A stretch of 64,000 bases of DNA, taken from the NCBI GenBank assembly GCA_029717555.1, contig JAMDHS010000006.1:367822-431821 (forward strand), written 5' to 3'. The notes under the pieces were generated by a model, which made no database searches, had not been told where the DNA came from, and saw nothing but the letters and a program-made list of their open reading frames with translations. Shown here piece after piece: positions 1,287 to 51,418 of this stretch. This stretch comes from Peribolospora baueri. Its lineage: Eukaryota; Basidiomycota; Peribolosporomycetes; Peribolosporales; Peribolosporaceae. Positions within the stretch are counted from its first letter, which is position 1; each line of letters opens with the position of its first letter. A program made the translations under genes and the position numbers.

Positions 1287-1330
<44 letters not shown>

Positions 1331-7308: not shown

Positions 7309-7651
7309 GACGGACGGCGGCGAGGTCGAGGCGGTGGAGACGAGCCACGGGTGCCTGCTCTGTTCGGCGGCTGAGCCGAGCTGGACGAAAGGTCACTACT
7401 CACTGGCGCCCTCCGCTTGGCGAAGGCGAATAGAGCGAGGCACGTGATCGAGCAAGGCTTTGGAACGAGAAGTCACGTGCTCTACCGACCAGCGGAAAAG
7501 AGCGGCTTCTTGACGTTCGCGCAAATTTCCATGATCGCCGTCCTTCTTCTGCCTCGCTCACCCTAATCTTCCCCTTTTCTTCGGCACGCAACCCGTCGCT
7601 CTTGTCGCCGCTCTTGTATTCTTGAGCAGGCAGGCAGGACCTCGCCAGCAC
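7309..7651. promoter_or_regulatory. Divergent promoter region, GCS1 / PPR gene
   Basis: 343 bases separate two divergent start codons, so both promoters and 5' leaders must lie here. I can name no specific factor site with confidence. Confidence 0.5.
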
Positions 7652-10600
7652 ATGACGCGCCACCCGCTGTTGCTGGCGCAGTTTAACCTACAACTGCCGG
7701 CTCGATCGCCTTCCCTGCCCCTCACGCCGGTGTCCTTCCCTCATGCCTCCGTGCTCTCGAGGCTCCTGCGACGTCACCTTCATGATGCCTGCGGGCATAA
7801 CGCACGGTATGGTACTGCCGGCGCAGATGGAGCTGACGTCGGCACAGTGGACGCGGTTGGCATCGGCGAGGCGAGCGCGCTCGCCGGTGCACAGGACGTG
7901 GCCACCCTTTTGGCGCTCGAAGGTGTTGATTCGGCAGTGGAATTGGAGCTGGGTTGGGTCGAGACGGCCAGTCGAAGGTGTCGAAACGCCGAAGTTGGTG
8001 ATCCTGCCACGCTCTCTTTGCCGAGACCACGCTTGGGCGGCGCTGCCATGGACATCACCTTGCGAGGCATCGACGCTGCCGTCCAAGCTGAAATCGGTCG
8101 AGCGACAGGCCGTCCTCTGTCCACGACCACTGGCCCTTCTGGATCGAGCCAACCGAACGCGTCCATCTCCGAGCGTTCCTCGGCTTCTTCATCGCCGATG
8201 CTCGATTTTCTTTATCCCACCCTCCAGCAATTTGACTCGTCCAACTCGCAAGAGCTGCGATCTCATCAAAGTGGTAGTGCCACACGACACCGAAGTTCTT
8301 CCCCCTCCATATCTCAGACGCGCACTGTCTCGCCTTCGGCAGCCGGTCCGACAGCTGTGCATGTTTCGCGAAAGTTTTACTCCTCCCGGGCGACCGCCAC
8401 CTCCCGACTACCGCCGCCCAGAGAAGCTACCCCCTCTTCGTCCGATGAATTAGGGAGGGCGCATTGTTCAGCAACGGAAGGGTCGCCGAGGCCCGCACGC
8501 CCTCCTTCGCTCTCGGCACCCTTCTGGCGTCTTGGCGCTTTGTTGAGGCAAGGAATGGAGAAGAAGGCGGGCACTAAAGAGGAAATCCAGATGGAATGGG
8601 CGGCGAAGATAGCAGCCATCGAAGAAGCTTGGGCGCGGTGTCAGTCTGCTCTGATCGATGCGGACTTCTTGAGCAAGCGAGACGGGGCAGCATCCAAGGT
8701 TTCCGAAGACGTCGACTCTGGATCAATTATTCCGCTGACGCGGCCGGCTCTCCTATCAGCCGCTACCGCCGTCCCAGCCTTTGTCCTCCAACGAACTCGC
8801 CGCCTTTATGCAGGCCCTTTGTTGGCAACCGAAGAGCGCCAGATTCATCACATCTGGGGCGACCGCTTGCTGAGCATGCTCGATGCGTGCGAAGGCTTCG
8901 ACGCTGAGGCAGGTCCGATTTGGTCGCGTCGCATTCCGATTTGGATGCTTCGCACTTGGGCTTTCGTCTTTCGTGGTGACATGCGCGCTGCCGTCGAGCT
9001 GGTGGAGTCTCGGCTAACGTGGGATGGTAGGGCCGAGCGGTTTTCCACGGCGGCGAGCCCTCAGAGAGAGCCCAACAGTGTCAATGCTCAGTCCCAAGCG
9101 ATGTCTTCAGCCGTTCATGCGCTCCTTTTCGGATGGGAGGTGTCTGCGAGGTGGGCAAACTCAAACGCCGAACAACCTTACTTTGACGCACAGGCAAGTC
9201 GAGACGAGTATGCGACGGTCTCCAATCCTCCAACGCCTGATGAGATTACCACCTCTGCACTCCGCTGGATCTTTTCCCGGTGGGATATGCTCGAGCAAGT
9301 CATTCACTCCTCCGCCGCTGTCGTCTCTGCCCATTACAAGCTAATAGCCGGCCTGAGCTCTGCAACGCGCTTCTTGGATGATAACATTTCCGATCGACCG
9401 CTGGATTCGACTTCAGGGGCCCTTGCGAAAACGGTTACCGGCCACGAAAGCTCAAGTCTTGGCATTTGGTCCTCCCTTTCCGCCCGTGGTGCCGCGTTCG
9501 AAATCATCTTCGCGCTCTGTAACAGGGGCTCCGCCGTCGAGGCGATGAACGTTTACGATTTCATTTTCGACAAGGGCGTTCAGGTTCCGGAGCATGTCAC
9601 CCGCAAACTCGTGCGGTACCTCTCATTTGAGAAGGAGCTAGAGCTCGCCAACCGCGTGTGGGCGCGGATGAGGAGTCTTTGGTCGGATGACTCGAACGCT
9701 GCGCCGCAGACATCCTCTCGGTTGTCGTCTACGAAGCACGCCGGACTCTATTTCCAACCGTCTACGTACCGTCTTGGCGTCTGGGTCCAGGCGAAACAGG
9801 GCCGCGTCAACGAGGTAGAGTCGCTCCTGGAAGAGATGGAAGCCGGCCCGCCAAGTGTCCGACCAAGCGCCGAGTTCACCTTCCGATCACGTTTACTCGC
9901 TTATTCCGAACGCGGAGACGTAGCTGAGTGCTTGGCGCTCTGGCAAAAACGGTTCGGCGGAAGCGACACCCAGGCTTGGCCAAACGTCAAGGAATACGGC
10001 CGTCTCATAGTCGCGTACGGGAAGCGGGACGACCTGGATGGAGCGAGTCGGGTGTTGTCTGAAATGTCGACCATAGGCATCGAGCCGGATCGGGTGATCT
10101 TCAACGTCTTCCTTGACGCCTTCGCACGCCGCGTGGATGTGCCATCGGCCCTCGCCGTTGTCGACAAAATGCGCGCAGCCGGCATCCCCCCCAATCGGTC
10201 AAGCTACAACACGTTGCTTCACATGTTTTCCTTGCGCAAAGACCCTGCTAGCGCAAGGCAGACGATGGCGACGATGCGCAGCGACGGGTTGTATCCCGAC
10301 CGGCTAGCCTGGACGGCGTACATGGACGCTAACGTCGAGGCAGGGCAATGGGACGAGGCATTGGAGGTCTACAAGTTCCTTAGGAGTCGACGGAACCGTG
10401 CATTGCGCCCCAACATTGCCACCTGCAACACGCTCCTCAAGGCCTACGTGCTTCGAGGCGCGCCTGCGCAGACAGTACTCGATGTGTTCCACGGTATCAA
10501 GGACCTCGATCTTGAGCCCAATATGCAGACCTACACCCTCCTGCTACTGAGCACCGCCGACGCCGGTGCGATGGACGTGGCTGAGGACATATTCATGCAA

Positions 10601-12220
10601 ATTGTTCGACGCGGTGACGAGGTTCCGCTCGGCACCATCAAGCCTAACCTGTACACTTTCAGCGTCATGATCCACGGCTGGCTGCGCCTTGGCCAGCGCA
10701 GTAAGGCGAAGGCATACTACGACGAGATGAAGCGACGCGGCATCGAGCCCAGCCCGGTTACTTACGGCCTCATCGTCACCGCCTACATTAAGAGCGGCTC
10801 CGAGGTTAACTTCAAGCTCGCGCGCGACATTGTGCAATCATTGATTGGCGAGCAGGTGGGCGAGAACGATATGGGCGGGGGAACGTTGATCGGCGAGCAG
10901 GTGGGCGAGGACGATGTGGGCGGGGGAACGACCATCAATCACAGTAGGACCGCTTCTTGGGACTCTCCCGCCCTGTCTCAAGGTCCCCCTTTTGAGGCCA
11001 TCTTCACCCCCATTATCAATGCCTACGCAAAGCGCCTCGACCCAGGCATGGCCGAAGCGTTCTTCCGCGACATGCTCAACCTGGGAAGTCAGACCAGCAT
11101 CGCGAGCTTTACCACGCTCTTGGACGCGTACAGACGCGTTGGAGACGTCGACAGCGCCAAGCAAGTGTGGAACAAGCTTTATTCGTTCGCAATCAATATT
11201 ACAAGGGAACCCACCTCTCCTGCACCCGCTGATCGCCGAGCTCTCGCCGATGGTTCTCATGCGTCTACTTCTTCCTTGGATCCCTCTCGCCGCAACCTCT
11301 TGTGTCTACCTCTGTCGGTCATGATCGACGCACTTTCCCAAGCGGGCCTGCATGAGGACGTGGCCAGATTGTGGTCTCGTGTCCGGTCCGATGGGTTCGG
11401 CTTCGACTCTCACAACTGGAACCATCTGGCTGTGGCGTTGATAAATGCCGGTCGCGTGGACGATGCGTTCAAGGTGGTGGAGAACGTGTTGACGGAAGAC
11501 GTAGCAGCTCCTTGGAGCAGCCAAAGCAGCATTTGGCAACGGTCATCGCTGGACGGAGGAGATAGATTGGGGATGGAGGAAGCAGAAGCGCGGGAAGGCA
11601 GCCGGCTGGAGGAGGACGAGTCGGACTCGAGCACCGGCGATGAGCCAGACCTCTACGGCGAACGGTCATCCAACCGCATTTCTTCTCCCTCCCGCCCTCC
11701 CAATCGCCGTTCCCAGGTACGCGCCGACGACGACATCTCCTCGGAAGAAGCGGCGAAGAGCGTCGCTGAGCTCGGTAGCCATGCCAAGTCTTCGTCTCGA
11801 GACGAACGCTCCCGTCTTCGAACGAGCACGCCGCCCGACCTCGGAGCGGCGATGGCGGAGCAGCAAATTGTGGGGCTGGCGCGTTCGATGTGGTATCCCC
11901 ACTTCAACACCCTGCACGCGCTCAGTCGTGCACTGGAGAAGTTGGCTCAGGGAAGGCCTGTTCAACGCATTGGGCCGTGGCTGAGCGGCGATGGTAGTCC
12001 TACGGAGGAGAGCTGGCCGGCGTCCGAGACGAGCGGCAGGGAGAGAAAGGCGGGGACTCGGGAGCAAGCTCTGGCGCTCTATGAGCACCTTCTCCGCACG
12101 TATCCTAATACGGTGGGCGCAGTCGCTGGGCACAGGGAAAAAGAGCGGACGAGGCTGGAAGAAGAGAAGGATCGGTTGGCAAGGGAGTCGGGCGGGAGGG
12201 GGTGGAGTGGTGGATTGTAG
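7652..12220 (+). CDS. Large pentatricopeptide-repeat (PPR) protein
   Basis: Intronless reading frame of 1522 codons from the first in-frame ATG (7652); a non-ATG extension upstream is not needed. The N-terminus is Arg-rich and poor in acidic residues (MTRHPLLLAQFNLQLPAR), compatible with mitochondrial import. Residues about 780-1050 hold a run of 35-residue PPR units with typical helix pairs, such as IFNVFLDAFARRVD, SYNTLLHMFSLRKD, TCNTLLKAYVLRGA and TFSVMIHGWLRLGQ. A further group lies at about 1120-1180 and 1230-1280. PPR proteins bind organellar RNA and act in its stability, processing or translation; the RNA target cannot be told from the sequence. The C-terminal third is acidic and Ser-rich (about 1300-1400), then becomes structured again. 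Between repeats lies a 45-bp in-frame tandem duplication (10841-10930). It is unusual here in having no intron. Confidence 0.85.
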   Translation: MTRHPLLLAQFNLQLPARSPSLPLTPVSFPHASVLSRLLRRHLHDACGHNARYGTAGADGADVGTVDAVGIGEASALAGAQDVATLLALEGVDSAVELELGWVETASRRCRNAEVGDPATLSLPRPRLGGAAMDITLRGIDAAVQAEIGRATGRPLSTTTGPSGSSQPNASISERSSASSSPMLDFLYPTLQQFDSSNSQELRSHQSGSATRHRSSSPSISQTRTVSPSAAGPTAVHVSRKFYSSRATATSRLPPPREATPSSSDELGRAHCSATEGSPRPARPPSLSAPFWRLGALLRQGMEKKAGTKEEIQMEWAAKIAAIEEAWARCQSALIDADFLSKRDGAASKVSEDVDSGSIIPLTRPALLSAATAVPAFVLQRTRRLYAGPLLATEERQIHHIWGDRLLSMLDACEGFDAEAGPIWSRRIPIWMLRTWAFVFRGDMRAAVELVESRLTWDGRAERFSTAASPQREPNSVNAQSQAMSSAVHALLFGWEVSARWANSNAEQPYFDAQASRDEYATVSNPPTPDEITTSALRWIFSRWDMLEQVIHSSAAVVSAHYKLIAGLSSATRFLDDNISDRPLDSTSGALAKTVTGHESSSLGIWSSLSARGAAFEIIFALCNRGSAVEAMNVYDFIFDKGVQVPEHVTRKLVRYLSFEKELELANRVWARMRSLWSDDSNAAPQTSSRLSSTKHAGLYFQPSTYRLGVWVQAKQGRVNEVESLLEEMEAGPPSVRPSAEFTFRSRLLAYSERGDVAECLALWQKRFGGSDTQAWPNVKEYGRLIVAYGKRDDLDGASRVLSEMSTIGIEPDRVIFNVFLDAFARRVDVPSALAVVDKMRAAGIPPNRSSYNTLLHMFSLRKDPASARQTMATMRSDGLYPDRLAWTAYMDANVEAGQWDEALEVYKFLRSRRNRALRPNIATCNTLLKAYVLRGAPAQTVLDVFHGIKDLDLEPNMQTYTLLLLSTADAGAMDVAEDIFMQIVRRGDEVPLGTIKPNLYTFSVMIHGWLRLGQRSKAKAYYDEMKRRGIEPSPVTYGLIVTAYIKSGSEVNFKLARDIVQSLIGEQVGENDMGGGTLIGEQVGEDDVGGGTTINHSRTASWDSPALSQGPPFEAIFTPIINAYAKRLDPGMAEAFFRDMLNLGSQTSIASFTTLLDAYRRVGDVDSAKQVWNKLYSFAINITREPTSPAPADRRALADGSHASTSSLDPSRRNLLCLPLSVMIDALSQAGLHEDVARLWSRVRSDGFGFDSHNWNHLAVALINAGRVDDAFKVVENVLTEDVAAPWSSQSSIWQRSSLDGGDRLGMEEAEAREGSRLEEDESDSSTGDEPDLYGERSSNRISSPSRPPNRRSQVRADDDISSEEAAKSVAELGSHAKSSSRDERSRLRTSTPPDLGAAMAEQQIVGLARSMWYPHFNTLHALSRALEKLAQGRPVQRIGPWLSGDGSPTEESWPASETSGRERKAGTREQALALYEHLLRTYPNTVGAVAGHREKERTRLEEEKDRLARESGGRGWSGGL
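10841..10930 (+). repeat. 45-bp in-frame tandem duplication in the PPR gene
   Basis: Units 10841-10885 and 10886-10930 differ at only three positions. Each encodes LIGEQVGE(N/D)D(M/V)GGGT. Forty-five bases add exactly fifteen residues, so the reading frame is kept. It falls in a linker between PPR helices. Confidence 0.95.
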
Positions 12221-12683
12221 CGTTCGCTGGAGGTAGCTGGTGTGCAAATCTGGTTGTAGGTTCGGTTTTGCATTCTCTTCAGGACCAGGAAGTCAAAATG
12301 TGTCTTTTCTCTGGCAATCCCATCAAACGCACAGGCTTCTCTGCACTCTTTTCAGCTGACGACATCGGACCTCTTGCGTCTGACGTATGTACAATACCGA
12401 GAATAAACGCACGTACGGCCAGGGCAACACCTAGGCGAACACAATCAAATATGACATTGAGCATACCGTTGGTTCCTTCGTCTTCTTGCGTCTCGTTCTT
12501 GCTGTCCATGCGATCGACTTCAAACGATAGAGACGGGTCTCTGCGCTGAACTGTAGCCGATGCTAGGTCAAGTCAGCGCTGGCCTCGCTGAATCAGCACC
12601 CGTCACACTTGACAAGGCGAACATCAAAGGACGGATTCTCACAAGGGGTGGCATGCGATAAGGGGCCATGCCAAAGAAATCAT
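12221..12683. other. Intergenic between convergent genes
   Basis: Holds the 3' ends of the PPR gene (plus) and the small membrane-protein gene (minus). A 76-codon minus-strand frame at 12279-12509 (starts MDSKNETQEDEG) has an acidic start and a hydrophobic stretch, and possible splice signals lie near it. Without a homologue I do not call it a gene. Confidence 0.4.
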
Positions 12684-13320
12684 TCAACGTAGATCCTGAG
12701 TCGTCCAGGAATTACGGAGAGACAAACAAACAGTCAGATCAACAAAGACCACCGTGTTTGAATGGCCCCCGAGATAGCGAAAACTCAAGTAGAGAATGAG
12801 AGGGGGGAGAAAGACGGGCGCAAACAACACACCCAGTGCGTTGCGGCGATCCTTCCGGCCTCTTCGTTTGTGAGCCTGTACTTGAGCCTGTGCCGCCAGT
12901 CATACAGAGCTTTGTGCGACAGAGCATAGGCAAGGAAATGATGAGCTTGCGAGCGAAGCTTAAGTGCGGGTCTGCCACTGCAGTTGGCAGATGCACCGAG
13001 AGTGGGAGATGGGTTCGGTCCGACTCACACATCCCAAACGCCATGCCTAGCATCCCTCCAATCCACAAGATCACTGCCACCGTCAACATCCTCGCATCCT
13101 CTCCATCGGCGCCAGCTGTGATGTAGTACCTTCCATCGGGGGTGCGAAAGCCACCTCCCCGAGGCTGGCGTCGACCGGCAGCTTGGGCGGAGGTAGTGCT
13201 GTCAAGGCGTGACCTGATGATGGCCGTGCCTGCTCTCGATGTCACCGGCAACAAATGATTGCTATGAGGCGCCATGGCTGCTCGCCTCAGGAGAGACGGG
13301 AAATGAGGAAGAGCGGGCAT
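12684..13320 (-). CDS. Small putative mitochondrial single-span membrane protein
   Basis: I do not recognise the family. The first exon starts at 13320 (MPALPHFPSLLRRAA); two other in-frame ATGs, at about 13396 and 13270, are alternatives. It gives an Arg/Ser-rich, acid-free N-terminus like a mitochondrial presequence, then FRTPDGRYYITAGADGED and one hydrophobic helix (MLTVAVILWIGGMLGMAFGM). A second exon follows in phase, after an intron whose acceptor I place near 12965. It encodes a basic, Tyr/Arg-rich tail (ALSHKALYDWRHRLKY, then RLTNEEAGRIAATHW). A last tiny exon would add three codons to a stop at 12684; that exon is uncertain. The predicted size is about 130 residues with one span and a charged tail, which would suit a small inner-membrane or respiratory-complex accessory protein, but this is inference only. 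It lies downstream of BUB3 on the same strand, about 180 bases from its stop. Confidence 0.5.
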
Positions 13321-13502
13321 CGTTGACAGGACAAGTTGATAGATGGTGATGCGAGAAGAATGATCTCCACTATTGCCTCGGTCCTTATGGAACTTCATTA
13401 GTCAGCAAGCATTTTGCGTCTATCAGTTTTTTTGCCATTCCATCGCTCAGCTCGCAACGCAGAACCAGATAACATCTTATACAAGGGCCATCCACAGCAA
13501 CG

Positions 13503-15299
13503 TTATGCCTTGCTCTTTGGCTGCGAATGGGAAGAAGCCGAGAAGGAGCGGAACAGGGGGTGAGCAAAACCTTCGTGCGCAGAGCCATCCCGACGCGTTC
13601 ACCCACACCCGGACGGACCAGAGTCGCGGAGAAAAAAAAGGAATGCAACGCACCCTGCTCTCCTCGTTCTGCCCTCTCCTCAGCAAAATCCGAATCTTCC
13701 CATCTCCCTCTTCTGCCACGCCGTCCTCAAGGTTAGTCCATCCGGTGGCGACGGCGAGTGTGTCTCCGTCTGGGGAGTAAGACACGACGGAGATTGGAGA
13801 GTCATATCGCGCAAACTGTCTTATGCGCTTCTTTGCCATGGCGTCCCAGATCGAGATCATGGCGTCGCCACCCGCTGAGGCGAAGGTTCCGTGGCTGTGG
13901 GCAGTGAGCACGAGAATTCAAAACTCAGGTCGTCCGAGACTTTCGCAGTAAATGTGCCGAGCGGTAGATGGGCACTGGATGTGAACATACCCAGGATGGA
14001 AAGCCAACGAGTTGACGGGGAAGACGGTGTCGATGCCGTCGACGGGTTGACGGTGGCACTTGAACGCGTACTTCTTCGCCTGCGCTTCTGGGGAGGGATC
14101 GAAGAACTCTACTGCCACACGGCCTTCTACGGAGGAAGTGGCGTAGCCTGAAGAGTGTGATCACGAAGGGATGGAAGGTACGACGATTAGATGAACGCGA
14201 TTGCCCATGGACGCCTGCAAGCGAGCCGTCCCGATCGCACTCTCGCGTACCCAATGTATCTCCAACTCTCACTGAACCCACTCACCCTCTCCGCTAGGCA
14301 TCGCCTTCACGTCCCGAATCATAAACTTGAGACTGCTCTCCCTCCTCTGCATAGGCTCTTGCTCTCCCTCTTTGCCAATCTTCCTCACATCCCAAATCCA
14401 GACGTGCCTCCCTCCCATTGCCACCACGATCTTGTCATTCACCACATCCATCGCAAACACCTTGTCTGGGTGTTGCAGCACCGCGGTCTGGGAGGTGGAG
14501 GGCGAGCGAGGGTCGAATGTCCGAACCGTCCGGTCCCACGACCCGGTTACAAGAGTGTCTGAAAATGTGCAGGGGGAGCAGGTCCAATCAAACAAACAAT
14601 CCATCAACCAAGGGTACATAAAACGGGCCGGATAAGAAGATACTTAACGAATAGCCATGCCACTCACTCGCCACATTGGAGTACTTGACGCACTTGACCG
14701 CATCGTCGTGCTTGCCGATCACGTTCGTCTGGCCCGTTTCGAGGTTCAATCTGCGGAAGATAGGAAATCAAGTGGGACCAACGGAAGATGAACATTCCAG
14801 CGTCTGACATCGTAGCCTCGCCACTTGACTCACAGTCTCACTCGTCGATCCAACGCGCCGCTCGCGCCAAGCTGCCCATCTACGAACGTTGCATCAAGCA
14901 CCGCTGCGGGGTGCTGGAACGTCTGGAGAAGCTCGTCTTTGGACGTGTCGTACAGCCGGACGGACTGCAGGAGAGTGCGGGGAAGAGAACAGGCGGCGAG
15001 GGAGAAATAAATGAGCTCACGGGCTACATCAAGCTCGAAGACGTATACTGAACGCCTGCAGTACAGATCCGCACCTTGTCCCACGAAGACACGAGAAGCG
15101 AGGAAGAGCTGGAAGGATCCCAAGCGAGCCCCGACACGGGATCCGTCGGCGCCGAGCTGAGCTCGACTTCGTCTAGAAGCGCATCGGGGGGAAGAAGCAC
15201 ACGAGGAAGTCCGGTCAGCCAGTCGGTCGTTGCACTTTTGATTCTTCAGCCGAGCAGCGAAAGCATGAGGAGATGCAACTGACGCTTCGTGTCCGCCAT
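13503..15299 (-). CDS. BUB3: Mitotic checkpoint WD40 protein Bub3
   Basis: Seven-bladed WD40 propeller that docks Bub1 and Mad3/BubR1 on phosphorylated Knl1/Spc105 at kinetochores. The first coding exon is only 16 nt (MADTK plus one base). The next gives [18 protein letters not shown] and [13 protein letters not shown], followed by [43 protein letters not shown] and [10 protein letters not shown]. The diagnostic Bub3 stretch [21 protein letters not shown] lies about 14055-14115. Downstream come [34 protein letters not shown] and [12 protein letters not shown] final exon in phase adds PKSKA before the stop at 13503, like the Lys-rich end of other Bub3 proteins. The [14 protein letters not shown] signature separates it from the related Rae1. 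It shares a 269-bp divergent promoter with the Brl1-like gene. Confidence 0.92.
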
Positions 15300-15568
15300 G
15301 GCCAGTCGTTGTCTTGGTGGTGGAGACGATGGTGGTGATGGTCGTTGTCGTCGTCGCCGTCGAAAAGTGCTCGCCATTCGTCGTCCATCGTAGCCGCTCT
15401 GGAAGATCGACGGGATTGCCGCAGCAGCCACGCGCCGGGGACGCGCCGCTGGACAAAGGACAAAATGAGGATCGCCATCGTCGTCTGACCACGACCGCCA
15501 CCACCGTCACCTCGCTTTCCCGAACCAGGCCCTTCCTTTGGGTCCGCCCTTTTGACCCCATCGCCGCC
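15300..15568. promoter_or_regulatory. Divergent promoter region, BUB3 / BRL1-like
   Basis: 269 bases between divergent start codons, containing a GTGGTGATGG/GTCGTCGTC-rich stretch (about 15310-15362). No individual factor site can be assigned. Confidence 0.45.
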
Positions 15569-17525
15569 ATGGCCTGGCAGCGCAGTAAAGAGGCGCCCAT
15601 GGACTGGGGCTACGAAAAGCCTGAGAGCAGGATGCCCTCTGACAGTCCATTTCGGAGGAGGCTCAACGAAGAGCCTCCTAGGAAGCGTAAGTTCCGGTGC
15701 TCCTTGGTGGGGGTGGTAGTGATGGCGGCGGCGGCGGCGGCGTTGCGTCATGCGTCCTGAATTGGACCTCGACACGAACTTGGCTGCTGCACGATACTCA
15801 TCTGCTCCTTCCTCTTCGCCCTCTTTCATCGGCTTGCTCTTCCAGGGCCTCACGCCGACCTCTCCTCCCCTCCTCCATTCGGCTTTCCTTCCGCTTCGGC
15901 CTCCAGCATCTTCCCCTCTTCATCCTCCTCCTCTTTGGCTCAGAGAGAACCGTCGGGCTCATTTCGCTTTGGCAGCAACACGCCCTTTCTCTTCCAGACT
16001 TCTGCCCCCGTCGCTTCCTCCCCGCCTACTTCCTGGGCGCCGCGTTCACCCTTCGACGCCTCGACCGCCTTCCCCGGCCTCGCGTTCAAAAGCGATGCGA
16101 GCGTGCCAGGGCCGGAAGTAGAGATGGGCGAGGCGACTCCGGAAGCCAAAAAGGCGATCGCTTTTGAGGGGAAGGCTGAGGGAGAAAGCGAACATGGGGA
16201 CAAGGTGAAAGACGAGGAGCACAATACCACCAAGACCGGAAAGCTGCCCATAGCATCGGGAGCAGTGATAAGGATTCAAAAACGCCGACAGAGGGGGGGC
16301 AGGCGTGGCCTTGCAAGAAGGGTGCACTATGAGGATCAGGATGGAAGCGACACCGAGGAAGTGAGCCAATGCTGAATCATACTTCGTCAGTTTATATCGT
16401 TCGACACTGTGTGACAGGTGGCCCGATTTCTCTCTTTTTTTCAGTTTCCTCACACGCCCTCTCGCCGAAGACGCCATCGCCCCGATCCAGCCTCCGACTC
16501 CGATGACCTGTCGGAGTCCGGATCCGATGAGGAAGGGTCGCGCAGCTGGATTGCCAACGCATCGCCTCGTCACTTGCTTGCCCAGCTTTCGTTACCCGTT
16601 ATGCCGCCAATGATGGGGCCTTCGGCTCAGCAGCCGGTCAGCGCCGCTGAATGGCCGTACGTGCTGTTGGGGTGAGTGCCAGCCGATGTGGGACTGCCTT
16701 TCTGTGTGACGCGCCGCTCACCAGACGTTGTAACTTGGTCATCACTCTCCCGATGCATTTCCAGGTGGCTACAGTTCCTTTTTAATTTGTCTCTCCTTTT
16801 GGCCTTCCTCTACCTCGTCATCAACTTTGTCGTGACGATCCAGCGCGATGTGGACAAGAAGGTGGAAGAGTACAGCCTCGAGATCCTACAGGAGATCACC
16901 CACTGCTCACGCTCATATATCGACAATCGCTGCGACCCTTCGACACGCATTCCCGTCAGCGAGGCCGCTTGCCAGGCATGGGAGCACTGCATGAACCGGG
17001 ACCCTACCGTCGTTGGTCGCGCCAAGGTCGGTGCCGAGACGTTCGCAAGTGTCATCGACGGCTTCGTGGAGAAGATCAGCTGGAAGACCTTGGTGAGCAG
17101 CTTCGGTCCACTTCGGCGTAGGCGCGTCGCCGACCCGCACCTCCGCTGGCGCTGATGAAACGAATGGTGTATTTTTTTCCCCTTCTGTCTGTTAGGCCTT
17201 CGGCGTAATCTCAACCACTTCGCTCATCTTCGCCACAAACACCACGCTCTCTTTCTTCCGAATGAAGCTTCCCCATCCCTCCTTCGGATCATCCTCGCGA
17301 AACGATATTCACCACCCGGACGGCTCCGCTCACGCACCGGGACAAGCTGCCATGAGCGTTCCACCAACGCCCAGCGCCCATCACATAACGTACCACCAAT
17401 CGCCTTTCGTCGGGGCCGGCGGAGGGGCATACACGTCGGGAATGCTGACGGGGATGGGTAGTCCGGCCGCTACGCCTAGTCGGAGGCGGAGCAAGAGGGA
17501 ACGTCGTGACGTAGGGGTCCATTAG
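15569..17525 (+). CDS. BRL1: Brr6/Brl1-family nuclear-envelope protein
   Basis: Integral nuclear-envelope protein of the Brr6/Brl1 family, which in yeasts supports nuclear-pore assembly and membrane lipid balance. Five coding exons. The first starts MAWQRSKEAPMDWGY; residues to about 250 are Ser/Pro-rich and disordered with Arg-rich patches (RRRRHRPDP). The core domain starts with a membrane helix (WLQFLFNLSLLLAFLYLVINFVV written in two parts: about 16764-16832). It then has the lumenal Cys-rich segment CSRSYIDNRCDP...CQAWEHCMNRDP, whose four cysteines form the family's disulfides, then VGRAKVGAETFASVIDGF and a second helix region (AFGVISTTSLIFATNTTLSFF). A Ser/Gly-rich tail ends in SRRRSKRERRD. 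The family call is firm. Brr6 and Brl1 are paralogues in ascomycete yeasts, and most other fungi have one member, so the symbol is approximate. Confidence 0.88.
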
Positions 17526-18038
17526 GCGCTCCGCGTTGGACAGGTCCGAAAATACCATCATCAGAACATGCCAATGCGCACAGCGCGGCACAACGAGTGC
17601 AACACCCTCCTCCTGTCTTGCTTCATCTATCTGCATATTCTCACCGCGGTACCTAATGGAATCGAGTCAATGATCACGCACGCAGCACGTCCTCTTTCCC
17701 GGAGGCGTCGGAAGATGCACGCGGGAACATCCACTTGCAGAAAACGATTTCGGTCATCTGGGACTCTACATCTTTGATCTAATATCTCGAAGTAAACGAC
17801 CTTTCTTTCCTCTTTCCTTCCGTCTTTCCTTCCTTCCTTCCTTCCTTCCTTCCTTCTGTCCTTCCTTCCTTATTGCTTCTCTTAGCAAAGCCTGTCCTCG
17901 TGATGAAACGCTCCATCAGCAACAACGACGACGACGACGACGACGATCAAGCTCCACAGCGAACGCCGACGATAACGGCTGTGGCCGTGGCCCGGGCCGC
18001 CAGCAGGGGCAATCGCACGGTAATCGTCGTAGCCCCAT
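17526..18038. other. Intergenic between convergent genes, with TTCC repeat
   Basis: 3' region shared by the Brl1-like gene (plus) and the sugar transporter (minus). A (CTTC)n microsatellite fills about 17811-17870 and a short GAC run lies at about 17930-17945. No gene seen. Confidence 0.7.
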
Positions 18039-21000
18039 TCACTTATTCTCGGCGCCTTCATCCGACCTCACCGACCTGGCCGTTCCCGACCCGGTTCCGG
18101 TTCCCTCCTCAGCTTGATGTTCTCCGCTCTTCTCCATCTTGCCTGTGCCCGTGGCGGCGGCGAGCGCGCGACGCTCGGCTTCGACGTCCGCGAGGAGGCG
18201 GTGAGCTTCGGGGCCGCCGGCTTCGATGCCGTACTTGTCCCATTCGTTGGCCACCCACACGGGGTTGCGTTTGTCCTCATAAGCCTGAAAGGGGGACGCG
18301 CAGAAGGGGAAAAGGAAAAAAAAAAAAAAAAAAAAAAAAAAAGTTCCAAAGTGGTATTGAGCGATCGTCATCGAGAGATCGACTGAGTGAATTTGATCAA
18401 TCGAACATGCATAACATGTCATGTGTGCGTGTGTCCCATTCGCTCACCTTTGCAAAGATAAGGTCCATTTCCTCGAGGGAGCGCTATGAGCGGTTCAGTT
18501 GGAAAGCGCGGTAGAGGATCGATCGATCAGTAAGGAGACATCCCACTGTTTGACAAGACGGACGGACAGCGTGAACTCACCCCTTTGGTCTCTGCATGCG
18601 GACAAGTGCCACACGTCCAAGGTCAAAGTGACAAGACGAAGTGGTGGGAGGAAAGAGCGATCAGCCGATGGTCGCCTAGCCGGCTACTAGAGTCGCCTAA
18701 ATGGGCCTGGATAGGCGACACCACACTTACCAGGATAAAAGGCCCAGACGGTAGGCAAGAAGGAAAGGTTGAGCAGACCAAAGACGAGGTAGGTGTAGTT
18801 GTTGATGTTTTTGAACGCAGGCCTGGATAACGTGGGCACGATGGATGGGGTAGGTCAGCATCTTCGCAGCAAAGATGGAGGGAGGTGGTTAGCGTTGTGG
18901 TACGTTCTGTACGCCTACTCACGGAGTGACCATGACCACCTGCATGTCGCCGAAGAACGAAGGATTATTGAAGGAGGGGGAAGACCAAAGTCAGATCTGC
19001 GACGCTTTGGCCCACACTTAATATCATGCCCGAGCGCAAAGACGAGTCTAACCATAAAGTTGAAAATCCAGTTCTGTCGTGATCAAAGGGAAGGATTGAC
19101 GATGGGGTCATGCCAAAAAAAAAAAAAAAGGGGGGGGGGGGGGGACAACGATGTGAGCAATGAAGATTTACCATCGAAATAGAACGACGGGGGCACACTC
19201 ACGCTGCATGTGGCCAGGGCGCTAGAGGCGGCCCGGACCTGGAGCGAAGTCACTTCAGGAGGGTAAAGCCAGGTCATGCCAAGCCAGCCGATGGCGAACC
19301 AGGTGTTGAAGAGGAACAGGAATGCAGCCGCGACTCCGTTAGGGGCCTTGGCTTTGGTGGACGTGCAGCCGCTGTGTGATGGACGAGGGAAACGGCAGAA
19401 CAGGTGGAGACGGATGAGCGAGGTGCGATGCTTGGTTTACTGGTCGTTCTTTCTCACCAGAGTACGACCATCGTCACTGTTCAAGGTGGGATGCGTGAAG
19501 CGGTGAGAAGAAATATAAGAAGATGTCAGAGGAAACGTCGTGCAGAATGATGATCCGGTTAGCACGTCCCAAGGGACATCCGGCAGGTACAAGGAGACGT
19601 ACGGCATTGCAAAACCGCGGCTGTAGCGAAGGGGTCGAAGAGAGCATGCTCAGCTTATCGTCTCTCCTTCCGCATCTCAAGACGAAGGCACTTGGGGCGG
19701 CTGTCTTCGGAAGTAGACTCACTCCACATCATGAGCTTGCGGCGTCCGACAGTGTCGATAAGCTTGAGAGGGATGAGGGACGCGAGGACTGAAAAAAAAG
19801 CAAGCAAGTGGTGGACATGAGAAGCGAGTGGAAAAGCCCCAGCAAAGCAACAAAAAGAGAGCAAGGGGTTGCACACTCACAGTATTCGGTGCCATTGCCT
19901 GCAGAACAACGCGGGCGAGAAAACGTCAGTCCGAGTTCGACGCGCGGCTGACAGATGACGTCTACTCACAAGCGGCAACCAGCCGAGCTTGGAAGGGCGT
20001 GAGACCGATAGAGTCTTCGTATACGACCGTCGCATAGTCTGCGGGCAAGCGCAAGAGCATGGTCGAGCATTGAAAATGAGCGGCTGGAGGCAGCACAGAG
20101 AAGATGTGACAGCGCACTTACAAGTGATCAAGTCTGGTTGATATGGGCAAGGAGACGACGATGAGCACGGTGGAAAGGGAAGAGGGGGCAGTAATATGAT
20201 CGGTTCCACTCACTGATACCTCCGATCTTTTTTTTAATCGCCAAAGAAAGCGGCGAGGCCGAGTCAGTAAAGCAACTCTATGACGAGAGGGGTTGAGCGG
20301 GAACGAGGTCGATCGACCACTCGGACACACCTGCTGCATGGCCTGGATCCAAATCGCGAGCAAGGCTCTCCTAAAGTTCTGGCTCTTGCCGCCCTGGATC
20401 ATGACCTTGATGTTGAGGCCTTCCTCTCCGGATGCCAGCAGTCCGTCCTGAATGGCCTTGATGGTCTTTTCGACGTGCGGATCGTCCTCGGAAATGTCCT
20501 CCAGACGAGCGATCACTTGGCGTGCCTCTTCGATCCTCCCTTTCTTTACGAGCCAACGAGGTGTCTCGACGAGGGGTATGATGAGGAAGAGAAGGAGGGC
20601 GAAGACGATTTGGAGTGCGATGGGCACCCTCCAGGCGGCCGAGGACTTGATGAAGGAGCAACCGAAGCCGACCCCTTGATGATGAAGAAAGAAAGAGGGC
20701 AATTTAGCATGCGCGTGCAAGCGGTTGTCCGTCCTGAGCCGGCTCGTAAGAAAGTCAATCGAAGGAAAGCTCACAGTAGGACACCATGATGCCGAAGGTG
20801 ATCAATGATCTGCGTGGAAAAAGGCGTCTCCATGGTCAGACAAAGGTTGCGATCGCGGCAGAAGGGCGTGCAAAGGTACACATACCCGCTGATGAGGATG
20901 AGGAAGCCGCGCTTGTTGGCATCGGAGACCTCGGACTGGTAGACGGGAATGGTGGCGGTGTCTGTGAACGCAACCGATTGGAAGGGGACGTTTTCCATGA

Positions 21001-21999
21001 TAAGGTAGGCTGTCGAGCGCAAAACGGGTACAAGCAGGAGACGAGGGGGGCTCACTCAAACCGTTGCCAACGCCGGTGACGATCCTGGCGACGATTAGCT
21101 GTGGCAACGAATACGCAGTGGTCTGGAGGAGGGCACCTGTACGGTAATAGTCACACGCACATCGACGGGGGTCGAGGAGACGACGGATAGCCTTTGAGCC
21201 GATGGACATGGGACGCGTGGGACGCACGGAGACTCACCGATGATCATTATGACAGAGCCCCAGACGATGGTCTTCTTTCTACCCAAGGCGTCGCCGACCC
21301 AAAGACACGAGAGTGCGCCCATCAGGCAGCCCTGTGAGAGAACATGAGGGTGGGTGTCAGCGAGCGAGCGGGTTGGACGCGTCTAAGAGAGTCGTAAGTG
21401 GATGAGGAAACGCAGAACGCACGATCTCGTAGATGGCCACCGTGATGGCTTGTATCTTGTCTCCATTGCGGTTGGTCTGGTCGTTGTAGACGGTCTGAGG
21501 GAACTGCTGCTCAAAGTAGGTGTTGGTGAGAAGACCGGACTGGCGGGCAGGACGAGCGAAAGCGAATGGAAAGGTCAGCTGGGGTCGTTCATTCGAAGGA
21601 GCAGGAGTCTGGCTGTCTCGAGGCGACGCGCACATAAAGACCTGACCGAATGACCCGACGGACGAGACGGAGGGGAAGGACGGGACGGAGGGTGAGTGTC
21701 GGGTGCCGAGCTGTCCTTCATCCATGCGGGTGACGAGCAGGTCTGCTTACCCTGATCATATCCAAAGAGAGTGAAGCCCGTGCCAGCTGATTCGGTTCGG
21801 GGGGAGGAGCACGAAGGGACGCGACGGGCGCGGATGACGTCTCAGCAAGCGTGCCGCCGGCCGGGCAGGCGATGCATCGTCACGGGGCCGCCGGCGGACG
21901 AAGCAAGCAAGCACATGCGGGCTTTTGAGACGCTCCACTCCACTCACCCACAAAGGCGACAGCCGTGGCGAGATTTTGTCCTCTCAAGTTCTCCCACAT
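18039..21999 (-). CDS. MFS sugar-porter transporter with many microexons
   Basis: Twelve-span major-facilitator sugar:proton symporter or facilitator of the plasma membrane; the sugar is unknown. It starts at 21999 (MWENLRGQNLATAVAF). In order, sugar-porter signatures are GTGFTLFGYDQG, SGLLTNTYFEQQFP, GDALGRKKTIVWG, NTATIPVYQSEVSDANKRG, VETPRWLVKKGR, QQIGGIN-LITYYATVVYE, DTVGRRKLMMW, NTWFAIGWLGMTWLYPPEV and PETKGRSLEEMD. A roughly 80-residue charged C-terminal tail follows, and the stop is at 18039. I count about 22 exons for some 560 residues. Eight internal exons are 21 nt or shorter and are needed to keep both frame and motif: 21634-21641, 20214-20226, 20122-20133, 19881-19898, 19458-19476, 19053-19073, 18923-18939 and 18581-18591. 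The helix after GRRKLMMW looks a few residues short, so one exon near 19480-19720 may be missed. Family call is firm. Confidence 0.88.
18316..18342. repeat. A27 homopolymer in a transporter intron
   Basis: Twenty-seven A on plus, T27 on the coding strand. It lies in the last intron of the sugar transporter, about 28 bases before the CAG acceptor of the AYEDKRNPVW exon. Confidence 0.95.
19115..19144. repeat. A15G15 double homopolymer in a transporter intron
   Basis: Fifteen A followed directly by fifteen G, that is C15T15 on the coding strand, in the intron upstream of the 21-nt NWIFNFM exon of the sugar transporter. Confidence 0.95.
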
Positions 22000-23614
22000 G
22001 GTCGGCCTTGTCGTCAGTTTATTGTCGTGTCGTCGACGTTGTCGTCGTCGTCTTCTATCTGGAGCGACTCTAAAGCAAGCGAGCAAGCGAGCAGGCTGGG
22101 GAGCGCGGCGAGCGACTGGGAAAAGGTGAGTGAGACGGGCCGAACCGGGCGTCAGTCGGAGGAGCGGAGGGAGGAGTCCGTCCGGCAAGGGGCGCCCTGT
22201 GGCCGTCCCGCTTTAACGGGCAGACGAGGCGCATCGGCGTCCTCGCAATCGTCACCCGACGTGGCAGGCGGGCGAGTGACCCGACAGGGGCCTGGTGCCC
22301 CTGCCCCTCGCCAGGGCGCCCCGTGGATGTGTGGAGGCGGGGAAGGGCGCGGGGACGATGGAGAGATGCACATGAGGATGGGGAACACCAAGGGTCAGTC
22401 AGACACAGTGCGAGTTTGCCGACCTTAGGCTCGTGCGGCGCACATCCGGAGGAAACGGCGAACGGCGTCTGGACGAAGAAGGTGCGTAACGGTGCATACG
22501 GACACTCGCGGAGGGAAATGGCAAAACGAAAGCGGTCAGCACGCACTCGCTTATGCGAAAGGGTAGGGCCCCCTTTTTTAATTCGGTTAGCCGTTCTGCA
22601 AGTGACCGAGTTGTATGTTCTGCGCACGAACATGACGACGTGCGTCGTTTGTCGTCGTCGTCGTCGTCGTCATCTCACAGACGGACCACCTCGCTATGAG
22701 CGCTCTCTGTATACGTCGGCGTACCGCAGCCGCGGCTCACGTGGTGGTACTGTGCGAGGGCGATAGAGGGACGAGGGGACGGATTCACCGAACAGGGCCC
22801 TCCTCGCCTCCACGATTCGATGCGGAGCGAGCTACTAGGCAAGAGAGAGGGGGGCCCCATTTCGAGGCACCAGTGCGTGTCGCCGAGCATCGTTCGTTCG
22901 TCGAGGGACGAATCGGAGTCGGACGAACGACGGACGAACCCCTCGGACCAAAGAAACTTGGACGACTTTTCTGGCGCGTCCCTAGGCGGTCCGCTATAGT
23001 TAGCTAGTTCGCGGCGTCTGTTGCGAGGTCCCAAGGCGCCCCACCACCTGACTTATTAGCTGCTTATGGTATGTCCATCCTCAATGTACCGTACTCACTC
23101 CGCCATTGAGATGAGATGAGACAGTGGCCAGGTTCAGATTCCGGCAACCAAGTCGGTTACTACACGACGTCCCTTCCGTCTCCGTCTGCGCTAGAGAGGA
23201 GAGACCAGAACTGATCTAGTGGTGCAAGAAACAACGGTCGGTCATCTACAAGAAAGAAAGAAATAAAGAACGACGGAACGGGAACGAAAAGAAAGGAGGG
23301 AGACAAGCTCAGATGGCGAAGAGGAACGGCAGGTAGCTAGTGATACAACCGAGTGGAAAATTCCACGATCGTTTTGCCCCGGCGCTTGCGGGACTTGTCG
23401 GGACGTGTGTGTATGCATTTGGGGAGGGGGGGGAAGCGGGAATCGCCGGTCCGCACTCCGAGATAGATATGGTAGATGAGTAGAGAGGAGGGGCGGTGGA
23501 GTTAGATGTCCAGCATCCGTGGTCCGAGGTGAGAAGAACATGAACGCGAGCACGAACGGACGAGTAGGGGCGAGTCGATGGGACGTGTGACAGAAACGGG
23601 ACGTGTGCGTGTAT
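22000..23614. other. Intergenic, upstream of the sugar transporter
   Basis: 1.6 kb between two minus-strand genes: the 3' flank of the mannosyltransferase gene and the promoter side of the transporter. A (GTC)n run lies at about 22646-22672. Overlapping ORFs here show no family motifs and I see no gene. Confidence 0.6.
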
Positions 23615-31598: not shown

Positions 31599-34500
31599 AT
31601 GGCCATCGACGCCGCCAGCATGCTCGGCAAGCGGCGTGAGCGAAATGACGCGGAGGCACGCTCGACGCATCATGGCCTCTCTCCGAAGAAAAAGGTCAAG
31701 ATGCGAATGGCTGCAGTCAACGGCGACGGCAGCGGGAATGGCAGTCCCAATGGAAATGGCAATGGCAACGGCAAGTCCCCTGCTCGAAACGGCGATGGAG
31801 GGGAACACGATGCGTTGCTGCTCAAGAGGAGAGAATTGCCCATTTGGACCGGTGAGCGAGCGTCCGTCTCGACTTGAGCGACTCGCTCCTCTTCGCTGCG
31901 ACTTAAGTCTTCCTGCTCAATTTAATTTTTGTTCGCCCTCCTCTCCCCCCCCTCTCCTTCAATTTCCTCCGCGCAGCCCGTAACGCACTGGTGGAGGCCG
32001 TGAGAGACAACGACACGATAGTCGTCCTTGGCGAGACGGGAAGCGGAAAGACTACGCGTGAGTGTCATGGAGGAGCATACATTCTCTCACGAAGCAGCGA
32101 TGCCTCAGTTCGACAAGGTCCGGACATGCGCGCGTGTGTTTGTCTCCCGCTGAGAATTTGGCCTCCCGTGCCTCCGATTTCACCCAGAGTTGCCCCAATT
32201 TCTCTATGAAGCCGGCTTCGCCGGCCCGCCGTCTAAGGGTCGCCCGCCACAAATGATCGGCATAACACAGCCGCGAAGGGTAGCGGCGACGTCGCTAGCC
32301 GCGCGCGTGGCGACGGAGGTGGGTTGCGAGGTGGGAACGACGGTGGGCTATTCGATCCGCTTCGAGGACAGGACAAGCAGAGAGACTAGGATCAAGTTTA
32401 TGACGGACGGCATGGTGCTCAGGGAGCTTTTGGGGGAGAAGGCTAGAAGGGACAAAAAGATGGAGGAGAAGGAGAGGCGGAAGGAGGGCGACGCGGACGC
32501 AGTCGGGGAGCAACGACCGAACGGGAGCGGACCTCCGTCTTCCCCTAGCCCTTGTTCTCCGCGTTCTGGACCTGTCGCCAACGGCAACGACGTAGCAGCA
32601 AGCGGTGCGTCTAGCGTGTCGACGGGCCTCCTGGAGAGATACAGCGTGTTCATCATCGACGAGGCGCACGAGCGTACTCTCCGAACGGATCTCGTCCTCG
32701 GGTGTCTCAAGGACGTGCAGCGGAGACGAAAGGAGCTTCGTAGAGAGTGGATTGAGGGAGGAAGGAAAGGGAGGGAGGTCACGGAACTCAAGGTGGTCAT
32801 CATGAGCGCCACGATCGATGCCGACAAGTTCAGCGCGTTCTTCAACGAGTAAGCCAAGCCGTCTCTTGTCTGCCGACGCCGCTTCTTCTGCACCGCTCAC
32901 TCGCTCTTTTTCACCGTCGTGGACAGCGCGCCGATCCTATACGTCCAAGGCCGACAGTTCCCCGTCCAAGTCCTTTACGCGCGGGAAGCGACTCAGGATT
33001 ACATCGACGCGGCTCTCAAGACGGTGTACCAAATCCATTGTGACATGCCACCGGGAGACGTTCTGGTCTTTTTGACGGGTGCGTACGCTTAAGCCATCGG
33101 ACGGGCCGGGGCCGCGCGAGCTGCCGACTGACAGGACGTCGTTCATCGTGGCCAACACCACAGGTCAAGAAGAAATTGAGAACGTGGAAAAGTTGATAAA
33201 GACATACAGTGACTCGTTGCCACCAGGGAAGATGAAAGTGAGTTTTTTTGGCCTTCCGCTCGCGTCGCTACGAGAGCGTCATCCCGGCTGCTCACGGTCG
33301 CACAACCGATTCTTCACGGCCACGGCCACGGCTACGGTGGGCGTGCAGATCGTCGTTGCGCCCATCTTTGCCGCGCTCTCGTCGCAAGCGCAGTCTCGAG
33401 TGTTTGACGCGACGCCGGCGAACACGCGCAAGATTGTGCTGGCGACCAACATTGCCGAGACGTCGATCACGATCCCGGGGATTCGGTATGTCGTCGACAC
33501 GGGCTACTGCAAGGAGAAGAGCTACCATTCGCGGACGGGAGTGGAGGTGCTCGAGGTGGCGGGGATCAGCAAGTCTTCGGCACAGCAGCGGGCCGGCAGG
33601 GCGGGTCGAGAGGGCAAGGGCATGTGCTTTCGGCTGTACCCGGAGCAGGCGTACACCGGGCTGGAGGCGTCGACGGTGGCCGAGATCTTGCGGTGCAACC
33701 TGATGGCCGCCGCGCTGGAGTTGAAAGCATTGGGCGTGGACCCGTACACGTTCGACTTTATGGACAGGCCGGACTCTGCGGCGTGTGAGTGAGGGCGATG
33801 GAGTTGTTGGGCTTTTACCGATTTTCTTGCTCAAGCGTGTTGTTGTTTGTTTATTCCACAGTGACCGCGGCGGTGTTGAATCTGGTCAAGCTGGGAGCGG
33901 TGGACGCAAAGACAGGCGAAGTGACGGCGCTGGGGATGAAGATGTCCAAGTTCCCACTGGACCCGCCGTTGTCGCGGATGCTGGTGGCGTCGGTGGAGCA
34001 CGGGTGCACGAAGGAACTCGTGGACCTCGTGTCGCTTCTGTCAGCCGACCGGGGCGTCTTCACGGACTCGTTCGACGACCGAGAGAGGGCGGAGGAGGCG
34101 CGGCGCAAGTTTGCGCACCGGCAGGGCGACCACCTGACGCTGGTCAACGTGCTGCGGGCGTTCGAGAGCGTGGAGGAGAGCGGAAGGAGGGCGGGTGGGG
34201 CGGCGGCGCGAGAGGAGGTGCGGCGGTGGTGCAAGGACAACTTTGTGGAGGAGCGGGCGGTGCGGAACGCGCAGGCGGTGCGGCGCCAGCTCAGGACGTT
34301 CTGCGAGCGGGAGGGCATCGACTGGCGCGTGAGCTGCGGGGACGAGGCGGAGCCGGTGTTGAGGAGCTACTTGGCGGGCAAGGAGACGCACACGGCGTTG
34401 AGGCAGCCCGGGGGGTCTTACAAGGTGGTGCACGTGGGCACGGTGAGTGTGGTCTTTGTCGGTCGACGAGCTTGGAGTCAACTGGGCGAGCTTAGCGGCA

Positions 34501-51317: not shown

Positions 51318-51418
51318 TTCCCTTGCCGGGAGTCGAACCCGGGCCTTGACGGCGCCTGTAGAGGCGGGATAAACCCTACAATGAGAGCGTCATGTCCTGG
51401 CCGTTGGACCACAAAGGA
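51318..51418 (-). tRNA. tRNA-Glu(CTC): tRNA-Glu (CTC), with 29-nt intron
   Basis: The minus strand folds as a cloverleaf. The acceptor stem TCCTTTG pairs with CAAGGGA, a D arm contains GGTCCAACGGCC, and the anticodon stem TGACG pairs with CGTCA around loop C-T-CTC-A. The B box is GGTTCGACTCC (51329-51339) with CCCGG-like T stem pairing. Anticodon CTC reads GAG, hence Glu; the TGGTCCAACGGCCAGGA part is also Glu-like. The intron is 51353-51381, directly after position 37, the canonical place for the tRNA splicing endonuclease. The T6 terminator follows. Confidence 0.93.

What the first reader, a model, noticed from the sequence alone, without database searches (positions are those of the whole stretch)
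18581..21641. Eight microexons (8-21 nt) in one sugar-transporter gene
Reading the MFS gene by phase and by conserved sugar-porter motifs forces exons of 8 nt (21634-21641), 13 nt (20214-20226), 12 nt (20122-20133), 18 nt (19881-19898), 19 nt (19458-19476), 21 nt (19053-19073), 17 nt (18923-18939) and 11 nt (18581-18591). Each is flanked by AG and GT and completes a motif split across it. The 11-nt exon supplies ETKG of PETKGRSLEEMD, and the 8-nt exon links GYDQG to SGLLTN. The 13- and 12-nt pair builds QQIGGINLIT. Dropping any one with length not divisible by three breaks the frame. This density of microexons in about 4 kb is striking. The weakest is the 13-nt one, whose acceptor follows A-rich sequence.
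Basis: partly seen in the sequence, partly recalled or inferred. Interest (0 to 1): 0.75.

Follow-up and report, generated by a model that had tools for sequence, protein, structure and literature searches.

The report
Nine microexons in fungal sugar transporter
A sugar transporter gene of what looks like a basidiomycete fungus is cut by 22 short introns so densely that nine of its 23 exons are only 8 to 21 letters long, a known kind of gene structure that automatic annotation easily misses.

Summary
All eight reported microexons are in the sequence at the stated coordinates, and a ninth (18 nt, 19603-19620) was missed. The minus-strand gene (18039-21999) has 23 exons and 22 GT-AG introns of 71-163 nt. 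It joins into an open 549-aa sugar porter (PF00083, profile 2-452 of 452, 363.5 bits). A spliced aligner, with protein profile (119 fungal homologs) and splice matrices (71 introns of paralogs) that exclude this gene, returned the nine exactly at all six intron penalties tested with it. Forbidding any one costs 31-53 bits. No shuffled segment reached the real score (0 of 200 for each). A homology-free scan (codon usage plus splice sites) found 9 of 9 at two penalties and 8 of 9 at three. Transcripts could not be examined.

Given 22 introns in 1650 coding bases, random placement gives 5.2 short internal exons (P of nine or more = 0.03). The unusual quantity is intron density (13.4 per kb); the microexons mostly follow from it. 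Most likely they are constitutive and spliced by intron definition (inferred). Microexons are already described in basidiomycetes and other fungi, so this is a very dense new example of a known kind.

The parts
21948..21999 (-). exon 1 (52 nt), start codon
   Evidence: ATG by hand, the profile match begins at 21987; same exon in the homology-free scan
21751..21786 (-). exon 2 (36 nt), LFGYDQG
21634..21641 (-). microexon, exon 3 (8 nt), completes G-LY-S
   Evidence: knock-out 39.7 bits, 0/200 shuffles
21423..21539 (-). exon 4 (117 nt)
21238..21331 (-). exon 5 (94 nt)
21056..21136 (-). exon 6 (81 nt)
20886..20961 (-). exon 7 (76 nt)
   Evidence: the homology-free scan starts it at 21009 instead
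20775..20809 (-). exon 8 (35 nt)
20331..20674 (-). exon 9 (344 nt)
20214..20226 (-). microexon, exon 10 (13 nt), IGGIN of the QQIGGIN motif
   Evidence: knock-out 31.0 bits, 0/200 shuffles
20122..20133 (-). microexon, exon 11 (12 nt), NLIT
   Evidence: knock-out 34.6 bits, 0/200 shuffles
19970..20038 (-). exon 12 (69 nt)
19881..19898 (-). microexon, exon 13 (18 nt), CNGTEY
   Evidence: knock-out 52.9 bits, 0/200 shuffles
19723..19788 (-). exon 14 (66 nt)
   Evidence: knock-out 38.8 bits, 0/200 shuffles
19458..19476 (-). microexon, exon 16 (19 nt), LTMVVLC
   Evidence: knock-out 37.3 bits, 0/200 shuffles
19203..19371 (-). exon 17 (169 nt)
19053..19073 (-). microexon, exon 18 (21 nt), NWIFNFM
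   Evidence: knock-out 51.2 bits, 0/200 shuffles
18923..18939 (-). microexon, exon 19 (17 nt), VVMVTP
   Evidence: knock-out 42.7 bits, 0/200 shuffles
18731..18822 (-). exon 20 (92 nt)
18581..18591 (-). microexon, exon 21 (11 nt), ETKG of PETKGRSLEEMD
   Evidence: knock-out 31.4 bits, 0/200 shuffles; the one microexon that the homology-free scan loses at its three strictest penalties
18448..18483 (-). exon 22 (36 nt), RSLEEMDLIFAK
   Evidence: lost by the homology-free scan at its three strictest penalties
18039..18284 (-). exon 23 (246 nt), C-terminal tail and stop codon
   Evidence: the profile supports it down to 18252, the rest by open frame; the homology-free scan gives other edges

Best explanation
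This is an ordinary, intact sugar porter gene of the major facilitator superfamily in a fungus, most likely a basidiomycete, with 23 exons of which nine are microexons of 8-21 nt. Shown from sequence: the exon structure, the full-length protein and the short GT-AG introns. Inferred: each intron is recognised as a unit (intron definition: U1 at the donor and branch-point proteins at the acceptor paired across about 100 nt), so exon length does not limit splicing and all nine microexons are included constitutively. Inferred too: the microexons arose because introns accumulated in this gene to 13.4 per kb, so that some intron pairs came to lie a few codons apart.
For: Open joined frame of 549 aa. 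PF00083 2-452/452 at 363.5 bits and 2882 homologs at E <= 0.001. Recovery of 9 of 9 with a profile and splice matrices that exclude the gene. Knock-outs 31.0-52.9 bits and 0/200 shuffles for each. 9 of 9 or 8 of 9 by codon usage and splice sites alone. Introns 71-163 nt, median 100, against a median of 95 in 71 paralog introns. Retaining any one of the 22 introns shifts the frame or adds a stop, and skipping five of nine microexons shifts the frame. CTRAY branch-like sites in 9 of 22 introns against 3.2 in shuffles. Random placement of 22 introns gives 5.18 short internal exons. A candidate Prp40 (FF domains, one matching FF_PRPF40A) is in the genome; Prp40 is described as bridging introns in yeast and as needed for microexons in C. 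elegans (PMC8378409, passages).
Against: No RNA evidence at all. Nine short exons is somewhat more than random placement predicts (P = 0.029, for a gene picked because it stood out). Several sites are weak (21-nt exon donor 7th percentile, 13-nt exon acceptor 9th, exon 22 acceptor 4th). The profile's homologs were found with the hand-joined protein and the paralog introns were called with that same profile, so the tests are not wholly independent of the model; the homology-free scan is the most independent one, and it misplaces exons 7 and 23 at all five penalties and loses exons 21 and 22 at three. WW domains, part of a canonical Prp40 (recalled), were not found in the four open frames tested. 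Intron definition was not tested directly.
Confidence: 0.88

Rival explanations
1. The exon structure is right, but one or more microexons are alternatively spliced and act as a switch, for example in response to sugar, giving transporter isoforms or unproductive mRNA.
For: Four of nine microexons (12, 18, 18, 21 nt) are multiples of three, so skipping them keeps the frame. A glucose-controlled 20-nt microexon is reported in Trichoderma Xlr2 (PMC11121469, passages). Some splice sites are weak.
Against: The in-frame ones encode conserved residues (NLITY, CNGTEYF, TAVLQCL, NWIFNFM), so skipping should harm the transporter (inference). The other five truncate the protein when skipped.
Confidence: 0.08
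2. Some of the nine are artefacts of forcing a frame: the true exons are longer, elsewhere, or the protein lacks these residues.
For: Short AG-GT segments are common. In the shuffle test of the 8-nt exon the best shuffle came within 3.6 bits. One false microexon appeared in 60 controls, and at lax penalties the aligner calls a false 10-nt exon in the tail.
Against: Forbidding any single edge costs 18.8-51.2 bits. All nine are found without homology at two penalties and eight at three others. The residues fit the columns of 119 homologs without gaps.
Confidence: 0.03
3. The introns were inserted recently by a repeated intron-like transposon (introner) that is active in this genome.
For: Very high intron number; none of the 22 positions is exactly shared with the nearest paralog L047, which has 9 introns (two lie within one profile column).
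Against: The whole gene searched against its own genome matches only itself and one 56-base exon stretch of L047, so no intron showed a copy; that search skips simple repeats and very common words. Eight of 22 positions are exactly shared with some family locus, so part of them look old or lie at repeatedly used sites.
Confidence: 0.03

Closest known systems
Microexons of Phanerochaete chrysosporium P450 genes (PMC1184071, abstract and passages seen; an 8-nt example in the I-helix motif cited in PMC12940212, passages seen)
   Same: Basidiomycete multigene family, many short introns, microexons of 2-10 codons, some splitting conserved motifs, hard to annotate.
   Different: Here nine lie in one gene of another family; introns are 71-163 nt (there frequent small introns of 45-55 bp, overall range 21-620).
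Intron-rich genes of Cryptococcus neoformans (PMC3990503, passages seen)
   Same: Basidiomycete with many short introns and, in an RNA-seq-based annotation, exons as small as 1 bp.
   Different: Reported density is 3.35 introns per kb of coding sequence and the median exon 194 nt; this gene has 13.4 per kb. The paper also names a gene with 42 introns, so intron number alone is no record.
Amylase genes of basidiomycetes that gained many introns (PMC3584928, abstract and passages seen)
   Same: Gene-specific heavy intron gain, some possible parallel positions, little variation of intron size.
   Different: There the gene came from bacteria; here it is a eukaryotic transporter family, and gain against loss cannot be decided from one genome.
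Xlr2 microexon of Trichoderma (PMC11121469, passages seen)
   Same: A 20-nt fungal microexon that encodes a conserved motif.
   Different: That one is a regulated switch in an ascomycete transcription factor; here nothing indicates regulation.
Micro-exon genes of schistosomes (PMC4350168, search listing and passages; details of the definition recalled)
   Same: Many microexons in one gene.
   Different: There most of the coding sequence is in symmetric microexons and varies by splicing (recalled). Here they make 137 of 1650 coding bases and five of nine are not multiples of three.

Membership tests
Sugar porter family of the major facilitator superfamily (PF00083) | Full-length match to the family profile above the curated cut-off | tested here: met
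   363.5 bits against a cut-off of 22.3, profile 2-452 of 452
Sugar porter family of the major facilitator superfamily (PF00083) | Similarity to solved sugar porters over the whole transport domain | tested here: met
   Sugar transport protein 10, chain 7aaq_A, query 15-468, E = 7.1e-38
Sugar porter family of the major facilitator superfamily (PF00083) | Transport of sugar or polyol | not testable with these tools
   needs a transport assay
Microexon (internal coding exon of at most about 30 nt) | Length of at most 30 nt between canonical splice sites | tested here: met
   8, 13, 12, 18, 18, 19, 21, 17 and 11 nt, all AG...GT
Microexon (internal coding exon of at most about 30 nt) | Needed for the reading frame or for conserved residues | tested here: met
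   knock-outs 31.0-52.9 bits; skipping results
Microexon (internal coding exon of at most about 30 nt) | Included in mature mRNA | not testable with these tools
   no RNA data in reach
Micro-exon gene (schistosome type) | Most of the coding sequence in microexons, mostly multiples of three (definition recalled) | tested here: not met
   137 of 1650 coding bases; 4 of 9 are multiples of three
Introner-like element insertion | Introns with near-identical copies elsewhere in the genome | tested here: not met
   only self and one 56-base exon match; the search skips simple repeats and very common words

The most novel reading that the evidence does not exclude
The gene marks a lineage in which introns are gained so freely that a transporter gene has been cut into codon-sized pieces: 22 introns, none exactly shared with its nearest paralog and 14 not found at the same column and phase in any of 20 family loci. 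The spliceosome of this fungus would then handle neighbouring microexons constitutively, which would make it a natural model for pure intron definition.
Probability: 0.2. Interest if true: 0.55.

Novelty: new member of a known kind. Interest (0 to 1): 0.36.

Why it matters
The short exons carry conserved stretches of the family (IGGIN and NLIT after QQ, CNGTEY, ETKG of PETKG), so an annotation that misses them would give a truncated, frame-shifted or gapped transporter. The gene is a compact test case for splicing of consecutive microexons (13 and 12 nt; 18 and 19 nt; 21 and 17 nt) and for homology-based microexon finding in intron-rich fungi.

Tried and rejected
Rejected: longer exons or cryptic edges. 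When a microexon is forbidden, the best alternatives (for example a 29-nt exon at 21682-21710, or extension of exon 9 to 20318, of exon 15 to 19566, of exon 18 to 19018 and of exon 20 to 18720) score 31 bits or more below the model.

Rejected: introner copies.

Rejected: a known gene on the other strand as the reason for the pattern. The + strand open frames at 17783-18511 and 21838-22425 match no Pfam family.

Led nowhere or only rough: the first aligner pass used too lax an intron cost and added spurious short exons outside the gene, in the target and in the paralogs. The homology-free gene scan over the window is crude: it gave 7.0 introns per kb over nine predicted genes, about 6.1 without the target, and at its two laxest penalties it ran past the target's stop with false exons; it is used only as a rough background. 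Intron positions in other fungi could not be compared, because no other fungal genome is held. Two of the three large protein searches, the structure predictions and the fold searches were not used.

Rows dropped: P0001 (945 aa) was left out of the profile by a length filter, so 119 of the 120 listed (of 2882 found) homologs were used. The tree used 16 of those 119 and the 15 of 20 family loci with aligner score over 120; the pooled short-exon count used those same 15; the shared-position test used all 20.

Full report
What was checked. The model has 23 exons from 21999 down to 18039, a 1650-base coding sequence and no internal stop. All 22 introns are GT-AG, 71-163 nt long (median 100), 7 in phase 0, 12 in phase 1 and 3 in phase 2. 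All eight reported microexons are at the stated coordinates.

What the gene is. The joined protein (549 aa) matches Pfam Sugar_tr over the whole profile (2-452 of 452, 363.5 bits), solved plant and animal sugar transporters (best 7aaq_A, Sugar transport protein 10, E = 7.1e-38) and 2882 proteins of the large collection at E <= 0.001, among 7993 scored candidates, the best 120 being listed. Those 120 are 50-58% identical except P0001 (37%). The organisms named there are, by my recollection of their taxonomy, Agaricomycotina, mostly mushroom-forming fungi; some entries are called 'sugar transporter STL1'. No near-identical protein is among the 120 listed, so this species' gene seems not to be annotated in that collection. 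In a tree of 32 rows (midpoint root) the target forms a group with the 16 fungal homologs used (99/96), which hold together without it (96/91); the 15 other own-genome copies lie outside. The window lies in a 22.1-Mb genome of 178 contigs. I take the organism to be a basidiomycete; this rests on the homologs alone, and its class is not determined.

Is it more than chance? I wrote a spliced protein-profile aligner. Its protein profile came from 119 homologs and its splice-site matrices from 71 introns of paralogous genes in the same genome, the target being excluded from both. The homologs had been found with the hand-joined protein, so the profile is not wholly independent of the model. The aligner returned exactly the model's exons between 21987 and 18252, including all nine microexons, and none of its 8 gap columns touches a microexon. 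The nine were exact at all six intron penalties tried, -8 to -28; at -8 and -12 one false 10-nt exon was added in the tail. Forbidding a microexon cost 31.0 to 52.9 bits. Forbidding one edge at a time cost 18.8 to 51.2 bits. With the segment between the neighbouring exons shuffled (dinucleotides kept), 0 of 200 shuffles reached the real score for each of the nine; the closest was 3.6 bits short, for the 8-nt exon. A control gene with the microexons fused to their downstream neighbours gave no exon of at most 21 nt, and 60 such controls with shuffled introns gave one false one in all. A second, homology-free scan using only codon usage of the paralogs and splice-site matrices found 9 of 9 exactly at penalties -10 and -12, and 8 of 9 at -14, -16 and -18. 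That scan misplaced exons 7 and 23 at all five penalties, lost exons 21 (the 11-nt one) and 22 at the three strictest, and ran on downstream with false exons at the two laxest.

What follows for function. Retaining any one of the 22 introns either shifts the frame or, for the three introns divisible by three, brings a stop. Skipping the 8-, 13-, 19-, 17- or 11-nt exon gives 38, 282, 378, 446 or 466 residues before a stop. Skipping the 12-, 18-, 18- or 21-nt exon keeps the frame and removes 4, 6, 6 or 7 residues (around NLIT, CNGTEY, TAVLQC, NWIFNFM). I infer that all nine are needed for a normal transporter, and constitutive inclusion is the simplest reading. Branch-like CTRAY sites lie between 60 and 8 bases before the acceptor in 9 of 22 introns against 3.2 in mononucleotide shuffles; in paralog introns it is 47 of 109 against 15.6. 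Introns near 100 nt suit intron definition. The genome has FF-domain loci on two contigs, one with a PRPF40A-type FF domain (31.5 bits, cut-off 27; [quoted passage not shown] elegans (PMC8378409, passages). WW domains were not found in the four frames tested. This mechanism is inference.

How unusual is it? The intron density is 13.4 per kb. In the same family in the same genome it ranges from 0 to 11.1 per kb over 20 loci, some of them partial or weakly aligned. The literature value for Cryptococcus is 3.35 (PMC3990503, passages). HSP70 genes here match in long blocks, up to 1398 bases, and a frame with PPR repeats in the window runs 1561 codons without a stop. Given 22 introns, random placement yields 5.18 internal exons of at most 21 nt, with P = 0.029 for nine or more. 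Over 15 paralogs the pooled count is 11 observed, weakly supported ones included, against 18.4 expected. Microexon number thus largely follows from intron number, with a modest excess in this gene. Other family members also carry short exons with knock-outs of 20-43 bits, for example 16 and 12 nt in L055, 19 and 20 nt in L057, 5 nt in L059, 7 nt in L049 and 16 nt in L054; others called there are weak (14 nt in L057, 9.0 bits; 3 nt in L056, 9.8; 10 nt in L061, 2.8), and a 1-nt exon called in L056 (21.5 bits) was not looked into.

Where did the introns come from? Eight of 22 positions coincide exactly, in column and phase, with an intron of at least one of 20 family loci (2.11 expected, P = 0.00045). 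Six of these eight are edges of microexons, as are 15 of the 22 introns overall. For instance the three introns around the 13- and 12-nt exons occur one at a time in L057, L048 and L056/L061/L062 (L061 and L062 are weakly aligned). Yet none is exactly shared with the nearest paralog, L047 (52.5% identity, 9 introns); two of its introns lie within one column of a target intron, so an alignment slip could hide a match. Shared positions may be old introns or repeat insertion at favoured sites; the phase-preserving test does not separate these. The gene's introns showed no copies elsewhere in the genome, which speaks against a recent burst of mobile introns.

Known or new. Microexons are described in basidiomycete P450 genes (PMC1184071, abstract and passages; PMC12940212, passages), exons down to 1 bp in Cryptococcus (PMC3990503, passages), and a regulated one in Trichoderma (PMC11121469, passages). 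Heavy intron gain in a basidiomycete gene is described for amylase (PMC3584928, abstract and passages). My searches (5 to 20 titles shown of each) listed no paper whose title or shown abstract reports nine microexons in one fungal gene, but they cover only an open-licence library and a few terms. I file the finding as a very dense new example of a known kind.

Noticed in passing
window 7535-12217 (+): Open frame of 1561 codons without a stop, with pentatricopeptide repeats (PPR_2 164.1 bits), in contrast with the intron-dense transporter gene.
   Followed up: partly
window 16676-17152 (+): Open frame with the C-terminal domain of a Brr6-like nuclear envelope protein (PF10104, 148.6 bits), facing the 3' end of the transporter gene.
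   Followed up: no
window 51318-51418 (-): tRNA gene (Rfam 50.5 bits) spanning 101 bases against a 71-position model, so perhaps with an intron.
   Followed up: no
window 33789-34718 (+) and 49607-50332 (-): Pieces of a helicase with HA2 domains and of a YEATS-domain protein.
   Followed up: no
L055 (G000:C91), L057 (G000:C119), L059 (G000:C136), L049 (G000:C44), L054 (G000:C128): Other sugar porter copies of this genome also contain supported exons of 5-20 nt.
   Followed up: partly
L056 (G000:C88): The aligner calls a 1-nt exon with a knock-out cost of 21.5 bits in another sugar porter copy; not checked by hand.
   Followed up: no
window 18316-18342 and 19115-19144: On the minus strand, a run of 27 T in the last intron, and 15 C followed by 15 T in the intron before the 21-nt exon.
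   Followed up: no
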